Part shown: piece after piece, positions 45,765-47,709 of the stretch
Position numbering within the stretch: the first letter of the stretch is position 1
Layout of the letters: each line of letters opens with the position of its first letter
Assembly: GCF_001543285.1 (NCBI RefSeq)
Contig: NZ_CP014164.1
Coordinates: 1,240,001-1,304,000, forward strand
Reading direction: 5' to 3'
Length of the DNA stretch: 64,000 bases
Source: Aerococcus viridans
Lineage (GTDB): Bacteria > Bacillota > Bacilli > Lactobacillales > Aerococcaceae
The notes under the pieces: model-generated
The model's database searches: none
Told to the model about the DNA's origin: nothing
The model's input: only the letters and a program-made list of their open reading frames with translations
Program-made: the position numbers and the translations under genes

Positions 45765-45964
45765 TTGCGGCAGTGACTGCTTTCATTCACATTTTCATAT
45801 TCTATCAGTATTTGACTTGTTTAACAAGTCATTTTCATAAAAACGTGCAAAATTTGCATGATTTTTACAAATCACCACAAAAATTGCCTACAAGTATTGG
45901 GTCTCCGACTTTTGGTGTGGATGAGAAATCATTCAAACCTATTTTGTATAAAAACACAAAAAGA

Positions 45965-46029
45965 CATATGAATATTTCCTATGCTAAAATTTAAGCGTCT
46001 AAACCAAAATTAGAAAGGAAATTCATATG
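45965..46029 (+). promoter_or_regulatory. Inverted repeat able to mask the transposase start; internal promoter
   Basis: CATATGAATATTTCC (45965-45979) is complementary to GGAAATTCATATG (46017-46029), which contains the ribosome-binding GGA and the ATG. Between the arms lies an extended -10 TGCTAAAAT (TAAAAT 45985-45990); a transcript from it would start near 45997, lacking the left arm. Confidence 0.6.
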
Positions 46030-47352
46030 TTTCAGAACGATAATATCAGACTTTTACTAAACATTAAGGATACTAACATCACATTTAACGAAGAAAATTG
46101 GATTCAAGAGCGTAATATTAAAGGAATAAATGTAAAAGTTTTTACTGGCACGTTAACCTACAAGCCCAAGGCTTGCCCTAAATGTGGTTGTGTAAATGAC
46201 CCTTCTATCGTTAAAGATGGGTTTATGACGTCCAGGATCACGTGGTTACGCCAATCCAATACACCAACCTATCTAGAGCTTAAGAAGCAACGCTTCTGGT
46301 GTCATGAATGCGATGAGCGCTTCATTGCTCATACCAGTGAGGTTGCACGTAATTGTCATATCGCTAAACAAGTGAAGCAATCTGTTTTAGTTGAGGCTGC
46401 AGATACGATTTCAAACAAGGATCTCGCTCGTAGGCACTGTATCTCAGATAATACTAGTAGACGAATTATTAATCGCTTTATGGATGACTATTTTCGTCGC
46501 AATCGCACAAAACTAGCGAAACACATGTGCTTCGTTGAGATCAAATCTACAAAACAAGCTGACAATCAAATGAGTTTTATTTTTAGTAATGAGGAGACTC
46601 ATGAAGTTCTTGGTATACTGCCCACTCGACAACTATACAAATTAAGAGAATACTTCCGCCAATTTAGTTTAAAAGAGCGCTCTGCTGTTGAAACCATTGT
46701 TGTTGATATGAATGCGCCTTATATGACTTTGGTTAGAGAAATGTTTCCAAACGCCAAAGTAATTATTGATCGTTTTCATATCATTCAATTGATTTCACGT
46801 TCTTTAAACAAAACGAGAGTTCAAGTAATGAATACTTTCAATATAAATAGAAATAATGGTGAAGATAAAAAAGAGTATCGCAAGCTGAAAAGTTTTTGGA
46901 AGCTTATCCTAAAGGATTTCAACGAAGTTGATTTTATAAATTATAGAAAACAACGTTTATTTAAAGGGAAAATGGTTTGTGATATGGATATTCTTGATCA
47001 TCTACTTTCTTTAGATGAGGATTTAACGGAAAATTACTGGGTATATCAAGCTTTACTAGAGGCTTCTAAAGAAAATAATATCGAAATGTTTCATGAGACT
47101 ATTACTGCAGAACGTCACCAAAATATCAGTAAATATATGCAAACCTCACTGAACATATTATTGAAGAATATAGCGTTTATCGCAAACACCTTCCATTACA
47201 AGACTAGATCAAACGCTAGTCTAGAAGGAAAAAATAATCGTATCAAAGTCATAAAACGTGTATCCTATGGATATCGAAATTTTTTCAATTTCAGAAATAG
47301 GGTGATGATTAGTTTCATTTTAAAACCGGGCAAGCCCGCTTCCCTTAATTAA
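46027..47352 (+). CDS. ISL3-family transposase
   Basis: 441 residues. N-terminal zinc-ribbon (CPKCGC near 47-52, CHEC near 94-97) followed by a helix-turn-helix, then the DDE domain: catalytic Asp in VVDMNAPYMTLVREMFP, second Asp in VIIDRFHIIQL, and Glu in NASLEGKNNRIKVIKR near the C-terminus. All three acidic residues are present, so the enzyme looks active. Ribosome-binding site AAAGGA overlaps the right arm of the upstream inverted repeat. AT-rich codon use differs slightly from neighbours, as usual for IS genes. Confidence 0.95.
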   Translation: MFQNDNIRLLLNIKDTNITFNEENWIQERNIKGINVKVFTGTLTYKPKACPKCGCVNDPSIVKDGFMTSRITWLRQSNTPTYLELKKQRFWCHECDERFIAHTSEVARNCHIAKQVKQSVLVEAADTISNKDLARRHCISDNTSRRIINRFMDDYFRRNRTKLAKHMCFVEIKSTKQADNQMSFIFSNEETHEVLGILPTRQLYKLREYFRQFSLKERSAVETIVVDMNAPYMTLVREMFPNAKVIIDRFHIIQLISRSLNKTRVQVMNTFNINRNNGEDKKEYRKLKSFWKLILKDFNEVDFINYRKQRLFKGKMVCDMDILDHLLSLDEDLTENYWVYQALLEASKENNIEMFHETITAERHQNISKYMQTSLNILLKNIAFIANTFHYKTRSNASLEGKNNRIKVIKRVSYGYRNFFNFRNRVMISFILKPGKPASLN

Positions 47353-47393
47353 ATAAACATGATACATCCCGCTCGCTATGTTCAAAGAAAAAA

Positions 47394-47513
47394 ACTGCAA
47401 GTGTACGTCCTTAGCCGTGAAAAAGCATGATATCGAGACCTTGGCTCGATATCAAGGCAGAGAGACCTTGGCTCTCGCCGGTGTCACGGCTCTTAAGGAA
47501 CGTACACAGCAGT
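47394..47513. other. Three-way-junction palindrome in the IS 3' region
   Basis: Outer stem: ACTGC + GTGTACGT + CTTA + CCGTGA (47394-47420) pairs with TCACGG + TTAAG + ACGTACAC + GCAGT (47484-47513). Inside are two hairpins with the same loop ACCTTGG: GATATCGAG/CTCGATATC (47429-47453) and GAGAG/CTCTC (47460-47476). Confidence 0.7.
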
Positions 47514-47571
47514 TCAAAGGACAAAAAAGATAGTTCTTCTTTTATCAAATCTCATTTAAAATAAAATAAAA

Positions 47572-47610
47572 AAGAAACTCAAATCCATATAAAATGAATT
47601 TAAGTTTCTT
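47572..47610. terminator. Hairpin near the right IS end
   Basis: AAGAAACTCAAAT (47572-47584) pairs with ATTTAAGTTTCTT (47598-47610), one mismatch. A- and T-rich flanks; it may end transposase transcripts and shield against incoming ones. Confidence 0.5.
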
Positions 47611-47709
47611 GCTTAAATTAAGCTATCCACATTAAATGTCGAAGAGCCCAAGTATTTCAACATCTCAAATACTTGTAGACAATCCTGTTTGATTTGCTTA
47701 AATCAGCAA

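What the first reader, a model, noticed from the sequence alone, without database searches (positions are those of the whole stretch)
45965..46029. Hairpin that would silence transposase only in read-through transcripts
CATATGAAT(AT)TTCC at 45965-45979 is complementary to GGAAATTCATATG at 46017-46029, which contains the Shine-Dalgarno GGA and the ATG. The extended -10 TGCTAAAAT (45982-45990) lies between the arms, so the native transcript (start near 45997) lacks the left arm and is translatable, while RNA entering from outside carries both arms and is masked. IS10 and IS50 are known to use this logic; I am not aware of it being described for ISL3 elements.
Basis: partly seen in the sequence, partly recalled or inferred. 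Interest (0 to 1): 0.7.

Follow-up and report, generated by a model that had tools for sequence, protein, structure and literature searches.

The report
Antisense hairpin guarding a transposase gene
A jumping gene's start signal sits in one arm of a mirror-image sequence that would hide it in stray transcripts and probably also encodes a small antisense RNA against it; the trick is known from IS10, and related elements of several families carry it too.

Summary
The hairpin is real: coordinates are right, z = -5.6, 0 of 200 shuffles fold as well. It is not private to this element. Of 60 non-redundant ISL3 elements with a clear Shine-Dalgarno, 49 pair an upstream arm with the ribosome site at z<=-3, against 2 of 165 ordinary genes. 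The arms co-evolve, the best promoter starts between them in 45 of 51, and modelled read-through RNA hides the ribosome site about 10 kcal/mol deeper than native RNA in 51 of 51. So the read-through logic is well supported in silico. But the stem looks kept mainly on the other strand: embedded imperfect pairs are G.U in the antisense RNA 52 times, in the sense RNA 10 times; the antisense fold is stabler in 48 of 51, though not in the window element itself. Rfam's Ref64 sRNA matches the stem on the antisense strand, below cut-off. Best reading: an IS10-like module, an RNA-OUT-type antisense RNA whose inverted repeat also silences read-through. ISL3 precedents exist (IS1181 antisense RNAs; 5' terminators). 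Its spread to IS256, IS30, IS1380 and part of IS1182 was unexpected. No transcript was measured.

The parts
45899..47648 (+). ISL3-family insertion sequence, 1750 bp, with imperfect terminal inverted repeats
   Evidence: ends read (nine copies with different flanks); nine near-complete copies
45891..45898 (.). target duplication CAAGTATT, left copy
   Evidence: read
47649..47656 (.). target duplication CAAGTATT, right copy
   Evidence: read
45914..45939 (+). hairpin just inside the left end, followed by TATTTTG; a weak counterpart of the inward terminators of some relatives
   Evidence: -10.9 kcal/mol, z -2.85; fails the strict terminator test that 13 of 51 ISL3 relatives pass
45961..45990 (+). 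predicted transposase promoter, AAGACA-18-TAAAAT with TG at 45982-45983; predicted start 45997
45962..45980 (+). left arm of the inverted repeat (lies in the promoter's -35/-10 spacer)
   Evidence: folds
46016..46032 (+). right arm, covering Shine-Dalgarno and ATG
   Evidence: folds
45957..46034 (-). predicted antisense hairpin RNA, about 70-80 nt; its ends are inferred
   Evidence: fold -17.3 kcal/mol, z -3.6; Rfam Ref64 at 45964-46025, 29.5 bits against a gathering score of 44.3
46040..46048 (-). antisense extended -10-like site TGATATTAT
   Evidence: position enriched in relatives; the pattern scan lists no minus-strand promoter
45958..45962 (-). U-run of the antisense RNA (AAAAA on the plus strand)
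46027..47352 (+). transposase gene, 441 aa
   Evidence: PF01610 and PF14690; NF033550 ISL3

Best explanation
The inverted repeat is an IS10-like control module of an ISL3 element. (1) The transposase promoter sits between the arms, with the left arm as its -35/-10 spacer, so native mRNA starts near 45997, lacks the left arm and has an open ribosome site. (2) The opposite strand is predicted to make a hairpin antisense RNA of about 70-80 nt that starts just inside the gene (extended -10-like site at 46048-46040, minus strand) and ends at the U-run beyond the left arm; it would pair with the 5' end of the transposase mRNA and block its translation in trans, more strongly as copies accumulate. 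(3) The same inverted repeat makes RNA that enters from outside fold over the ribosome site. Shown here: the stem, the covariation, the promoter position, the strand bias, and the enrichment of the antisense -10 and U-run in the family. Inferred: that the antisense RNA is made, its ends, and that either RNA lowers transposition.
For: Stem z<=-3 in 49 of 60 ISL3 elements, 2 of 165 ordinary genes. Own arms median -20.8 kcal/mol, arms swapped between ISL3 elements -10.4, between families -10.1; both-side changes in 10 of 26 pairs (4.5 in shuffles) and 11 of 14 (7.3). Best promoter starts between the arms in 45 of 51, 0.25 in shuffles. Opening the ribosome site: native 4.3, read-through 14.2 kcal/mol, higher in 51 of 51. 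Embedded sense G.U 10 against A.C (antisense G.U) 52; 3 against 29 elements; swapped-arm null 244 to 380. Antisense fold stabler in 48 of 51 ISL3, in 44 of 168 ordinary genes. Antisense -10 of 5 bits or more at sense +8..+21 in 55% of 51 ISL3, 3% of other windows, 11% of 168 genes; A-run at the left foot in 45 of 51, background 0.20. Ref64 on the antisense strand. Antisense RNAs detected over the 5' and 3' UTRs of IS1181 and shown to lower IS256 transposase.
Against: No RNA was measured. In the window element the sense fold is slightly the stabler (-18.6 against -17.3), against the family trend. No minus-strand promoter is listed for the window, so no -35 was seen. Ref64 is below its gathering score here (29.5 against 44.3), and that family's strand and expression rest on a paper that is not held. 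The embedded A.C cases partly recur at the same positions in related elements (+4: 6, +3: 5, 0: 5), so they are not independent; IS256 shows no such bias (7 to 9) and IS1380 only that of its null. IS1380 shows no antisense -10 in that window (0 of 10) and few A-runs (2 of 10); IS1182 few A-runs (1 of 9).
Confidence: 0.6

Rival explanations
1. Antisense RNA only: the palindrome exists because it encodes a stable antisense hairpin ending in its own terminator. Masking of read-through RNA follows from the geometry but matters little.
For: Strand bias of embedded pairs and of folds; antisense -10 and U-run at the feet of the stem; antisense RNAs reported for IS1181.
Against: Modelled read-through RNA is strongly masked in 51 of 51 ISL3 elements; the window's sense fold is as stable as its antisense fold.
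Confidence: 0.22
2. Read-through masking only: the repeat serves the sense RNA and there is no antisense RNA.
For: Promoter between the arms in 45 of 51; native open, read-through masked in 51 of 51.
Against: Embedded imperfect pairs favour antisense G.U 52 to 10; antisense fold stabler in 48 of 51; antisense -10 and U-run enriched.
Confidence: 0.1
3. A DNA-level palindrome, for example paired binding sites of the transposase or of a host repressor around the promoter.
Against: The strand asymmetry of imperfect pairs and folds is not expected of DNA sites; the arms differ widely in sequence between elements while still pairing.
Confidence: 0.05
4. Chance complementarity in A+T-rich sequence.
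For: Ordinary leaders reach a median duplex energy of -9.3 kcal/mol.
Against: 0 of 200 shuffles; 0 of 165 ordinary genes at z<=-4 against 42 of 60 ISL3 elements; co-evolving arms.
Confidence: 0.01

Closest known systems
IS10/Tn10 RNA-IN and RNA-OUT control (passages of PMC5006887); protection from external promoters (Davis, Simons and Kleckner 1985, title seen only as a reference, mechanism recalled)
   Same: Antisense RNA of about 70 nt opposite the ribosome site, its 3' part overlapping the transposase promoter; read-through RNA predicted to be masked.
   Different: Another IS family and host group; in the window the antisense RNA is predicted, not measured; no Dam-type control looked for.
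IS1181 of Staphylococcus aureus with Teg17/RsaOW (5' UTR) and Teg24as (3' UTR) (passages of PMC3053349, PMC2873960, PMC3861533)
   Same: ISL3-like element; antisense RNA over the 5' UTR including part of the Shine-Dalgarno; resemblance to RNA-OUT noted there.
   Different: Not compared by sequence here; the passages seen do not speak of read-through masking or of a promoter inside the repeat.
IS256 site 1 antisense RNA in Enterococcus faecalis (passages of PMC10266640)
   Same: Antisense RNA at the 5' end of the transposase gene; removing its -10 raised transposase-GFP and transposase RNA.
   Different: IS256 family; its loss lowered circle formation, which is not what simple repression predicts.
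5' terminators of insertion sequences, ISL3 of Firmicutes included (passages of PMC2965389)
   Same: Protection of the transposase gene from outside transcription.
   Different: Acts by ending transcription; passed strictly by 13 of 51 ISL3 relatives and not by the window element.
Rfam RF02847 Ref64, Enterococcus sRNA
   Same: Same stem, same (antisense) strand, same place at the transposase start.
   Different: Window match 29.5 bits, gathering score 44.3; of 30 loci inspected most adjoin IS1380-, IS1182- or IS256-like genes, 4 ISL3.

Membership tests
ISL3 insertion sequence family | ISL3 DDE transposase | tested here: met
   PF01610 156.3 bits against cut-off 23; NF033550 268.4 against 180
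ISL3 insertion sequence family | 8-bp target duplication and terminal inverted repeats (family trait recalled) | tested here: met
   CAAGTATT on both sides; ends GGGTCTCCGACTTTTGGTGTGGAT and, reversed, GGCTCTTCGACATTTAATGTGGAT
IS10-type antisense control (works like) | a short stable antisense RNA opposite the ribosome site is made | not testable with these tools
   only predicted here; reported for IS1181 and IS256
IS10-type antisense control (works like) | antisense promoter just inside the gene and terminator beyond the left arm | tested here: inconclusive
   -10 and U-run enriched in ISL3 and present in the window; no minus-strand promoter listed
IS10-type protection from read-through (works like) | read-through RNA masks the ribosome site, native RNA does not | tested here: met
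   in silico only: window 14.0 against 4.8 kcal/mol; 51 of 51 ISL3
IS10-type antisense control (works like) | multicopy inhibition | not testable with these tools
   needs an experiment
IS4 family (to which IS10 belongs, recalled) | IS4-type transposase | tested here: not met
   transposase is ISL3; no IS4 model at E<=0.001
Rfam RF02847 Ref64 | bit score at or above the gathering score 44.3 | tested here: not met
   29.5 bits
Teg17/RsaOW of IS1181 | sequence relationship | not tested
   no IS1181 sequence was fetched

The most novel reading that the evidence does not exclude
Unrelated IS families in these genomes share one 5' control module: promoter inside an inverted repeat, an antisense hairpin, and a common leader/loop block that by eye reads AAGTNACNACAACC or AAGTGACYAAACC. 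Exact shared stretches of up to 19 nt between ISL3 and IS256 elements (longest 9 in mononucleotide shuffles) would mean that the module is exchanged between families, or that the common loop lets the antisense RNA of one family act on transposase mRNAs of another, a cross-family brake on transposition. Against cross-talk in the own genome: the six leaders compared there share only 6-9 nt.
Probability: 0.12. Interest if true: 0.75.

Novelty: new member of a known kind. Interest (0 to 1): 0.45.

Why it matters
The logic known from IS10 appears, on comparative evidence, to be a common design in several Gram-positive IS families (ISL3, IS256, IS30, IS1380, part of IS1182), and not in a small IS6 sample. 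If so, a freshly inserted element is shielded from the host's own transcription while its copy number limits itself through a small RNA. It would also give a likely meaning to an orphan sRNA family (Ref64). The strand bias of imperfect pairs is a cheap way to tell which strand's RNA a palindrome serves.

Tried and rejected
A first measure, the pairing probability of the ribosome site with upstream positions, separated poorly (mean 0.65 in 68 ISL3 elements, 0.36 in 197 control genes) and was replaced by duplex energy with a shuffle z-score. The control set still held the window transposase and other IS genes; one search removed 3 IS genes.

IS30 was chosen as a negative control and turned out positive (16 of 21 at z<=-3). 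IS6 was used next: 0 of 7 at z<=-3 (lowest -2.7), about three of them with doubtful start codons. I expected Ref64 hits to lie beside ISL3 genes; tblastn found an ISL3 gene in only 4 of 30 loci. The genome-contig scan gave 13 pattern matches and no relative. The search for papers naming Ref64 found none, and two papers asked for by DOI are not held. A strict inward-terminator test failed for the window element.

Rows dropped before counts: 68 non-redundant full-length ISL3 elements, of which 8 had no clear Shine-Dalgarno; IS30 L309 (Ns) gave no value. The set at z<=-3 is 49 of 60 and 51 of 60 (part), because shuffles were redrawn with fewer repeats; likewise IS1182 10 of 22 and 9 later. One search used instead the 52 of 60 ISL3 stems that pass a strand-neutral score. 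Of the more distant ISL3 elements of the phylum search, L129, L134, L135 and L137 have the stem and L127, L128, L133, L136 and L140 do not, mostly with doubtful starts.

Full report
WHAT IS THERE. The window carries a complete ISL3-family insertion sequence at 45899-47648, flanked by the 8-bp duplication CAAGTATT. Its 441-aa transposase (46027-47352) matches DDE_Tnp_ISL3 and the ISL3 zinc ribbon and NCBI's ISL3 model. The own genome holds 9 near-complete copies; as far as printed, their 5' leaders are the same save two single changes in L009. The folded stem is longer, 45962-45980 with 46016-46032, -18.6 kcal/mol, z -5.6, 0 of 200 shuffles as stable; RNA beginning at 45997 has no such fold. 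The left arm fills the spacer of a TG-extended promoter AAGACA-18-TAAAAT.

IS IT SELECTED? Relatives were collected by protein similarity, not by structure. 68 non-redundant full-length ISL3 elements remained, 60 of them with a clear Shine-Dalgarno. The duplex energy between -80..-30 and -22..+9 was compared with shuffled upstream sequence. 49 of 60 ISL3 elements reach z<=-3 and 42 z<=-4; of 165 ordinary genes from 264 kb of the own genome, 2 and 0. In a swap test own arms score a median of -20.8 kcal/mol, arms exchanged between ISL3 elements -10.4, arms of different families -10.1; the own pairing beats at least 95% of swaps in 37 of 60 and all swaps in 13, close relatives sharing arms. Pair counting on a 10-sequence alignment gives 10 of 26 pairs with changes on both sides (4.5 in shuffles), on a 24-sequence alignment 11 of 14 (7.3 in shuffles; there one measure, further pair types, did not exceed shuffles). 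The structures were derived from the same sequences, which favours them over the slid controls.

READ-THROUGH LOGIC. In 51 ISL3 elements at z<=-3 the best sense promoter has its predicted start between the arms in 45, against 0.25 in shuffles. Opening the ribosome site costs a median 4.3 kcal/mol in native RNA and 14.2 in read-through RNA, higher in 51 of 51; ordinary genes cost 5.9. For the window element the values are 4.8 and 14.0. These are model energies with predicted starts, not measurements.

WHICH STRAND? A stem that works in the sense RNA should tolerate sense G.U; one that works in the antisense RNA should tolerate sense A.C, which is antisense G.U. Aligned with a score that treats both alike, 52 ISL3 stems contain 10 embedded sense G.U and 52 embedded sense A.C; 29 elements have more A.C and 3 more G.U; chance alignments of swapped arms give 244 to 380. 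Counting all imperfect pairs, not only embedded ones, the lean is milder: 29 to 73 (p 0.005 against the null share 0.43). IS30 leans the same way (10 to 25; null 290 to 365), as does IS1182 (4 to 12; null 349 to 244); IS1380 (7 to 17) is like its null (278 to 700), and IS256 shows nothing (7 to 9). The antisense strand folds more stably in 48 of 51 ISL3 elements (median 5.9 kcal/mol), whereas in ordinary genes the sense strand does (antisense stabler in 44 of 168). Without the z filter it is 55 of 60 ISL3, 17 of 20 IS30, 11 of 14 IS1380, 9 of 14 IS256 and 10 of 22 IS1182. Elements are related, so these are not independent trials. The window element itself does not follow the trend (-18.6 sense, -17.3 antisense).

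AN ANTISENSE RNA. A -10-like hexamer of at least 5 bits on the antisense strand at sense +8..+21 occurs in 55% of 51 ISL3 elements, against 3% of other windows of the same genes and 11% of 168 ordinary genes; the figures are 64% of 11 IS256, 56% of 9 IS1182, 31% of 16 IS30 and 0 of 10 IS1380. In the window it is TGATATTAT at 46048-46040; the pattern scan lists no minus-strand promoter, so no -35 was seen. A run of four or more A, the antisense U-run, stands at the left foot in 45 of 51 ISL3 (background 0.20), 10 of 11 IS256, 16 of 16 IS30, 2 of 10 IS1380 and 1 of 9 IS1182; by eye the low counts come from my duplex running past the A-run. Rfam Ref64, an Enterococcus sRNA family, matches 45964-46025 on the minus strand with 29.5 bits (gathering score 44.3). 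Over 198 genomes of the order, 66 have Ref64 matches at E<=0.01, 7 of them over the cut-off, and 0 of 14 control genomes. Of 30 such loci inspected, the gene at the stem looks, by its first residues, IS1380-like in 11, IS1182-like in 7, IS256-like in 6 and ISL3 in 4, with 2 unassigned. Profiles were run for four of the non-ISL3 loci: IS1182 for L159, IS1380 for L075, IS256 for L168, and for L172 Pfam only, with the same domain as L075.

BREADTH. The stem test gave z<=-3 in IS256 11 of 14, IS1380 10 of 14, IS30 16 of 21 (meant as a negative control), IS1182 10 of 22 and IS6 0 of 7. A covariance model built from ISL3 leaders alone, run on 67 of the sources held, also finds IS256 leaders (best E 2.7e-6) and IS1182 leaders (best 1e-5); IS30 and IS1380 matches are weak (E 0.03 and above). 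Sense promoter placement between the arms holds for IS1380 (8 of 10) and IS1182 (8 of 9) but is weak for IS256 (5 of 11) and IS30 (3 of 16). The named elements IS1251 (z -4.5), ISEfa11 (z -3.3) and a Jeotgalibaca ISL3 (z -7.4) have the stem; the Gram-negative ISPpu12, ISKpn25 and ISStma11 do not (z 0.8, -0.8, -0.3).

WHAT IS IN PRINT. All from passages. IS1181 has antisense RNAs over its 5' and 3' UTRs, with resemblance to RNA-OUT noted (PMC3053349; PMC2873960; PMC3861533), and is annotated ISL3-like (PMC9660545). IS256 in E. faecalis has an antisense RNA; loss of its -10 raised transposase-GFP and transposase RNA but lowered circles (PMC10266640). ISL3 elements of Firmicutes carry 5' terminators that prevent expression when inserted in a transcribed region (PMC2965389). 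ISPpu9 has a ribosome-masking leader with an activating antisense RNA (PMC8450116). IS10's RNA-OUT is 69 nt and pairs with the ribosome site (PMC5006887). I found no description of the RBS-masking read-through fold in ISL3 (searches); most subscription papers are not held, so this absence is weak.

VERDICT. Observation confirmed and shown to be under selection. A new member of a known kind; the unexpectedly wide spread across IS families is the more interesting part.

Noticed in passing
47393-47514: The 3' non-coding part of the element folds into a strong branched structure (-62.6 kcal/mol, z -7.4, 0 of 200 shuffles). Its DNA is 84-89% identical at 12 other places of the own genome, each just downstream of an ISL3 transposase only 33-35% identical in protein, with a compensated change in one stem by eye (GATATC/GATATC to GAAATC/GATTTC). 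No Rfam family at E<=1 on either strand there. It may be a counterpart of the 3' antisense RNA Teg24as of IS1181.
   Followed up: partly
45914-45946: Hairpin plus TATTTTG just inside the left end. In relatives this place often holds an inward terminator-like hairpin: strict test passed by 13 of 51 ISL3 and 7 of 9 IS1182 elements, shuffles 0.01 and 0.00.
   Followed up: partly
45813-45831 and 45844-45860: Two rightward terminator-like hairpins outside the element, between the divergent left gene and the element (2 found, 0.2 expected in shuffles).
   Followed up: no
L038/L257, L028/L260, L083/L210: Leader blocks between promoter and Shine-Dalgarno are shared exactly over 17-19 nt by elements of different IS families (ISL3 with IS256 or IS1182), longest 9 in shuffles. 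Exchange or convergence is open.
   Followed up: partly
L007 and L008 (own genome): Two of the nine copies carry stop codons in the transposase frame; their palindrome arms look unchanged as far as printed.
   Followed up: no
L177 (G111): A Ref64-like hairpin, present in many copies in that genome (15 matches), with no transposase-like ORF at the stem; possibly a short non-autonomous element.
   Followed up: no
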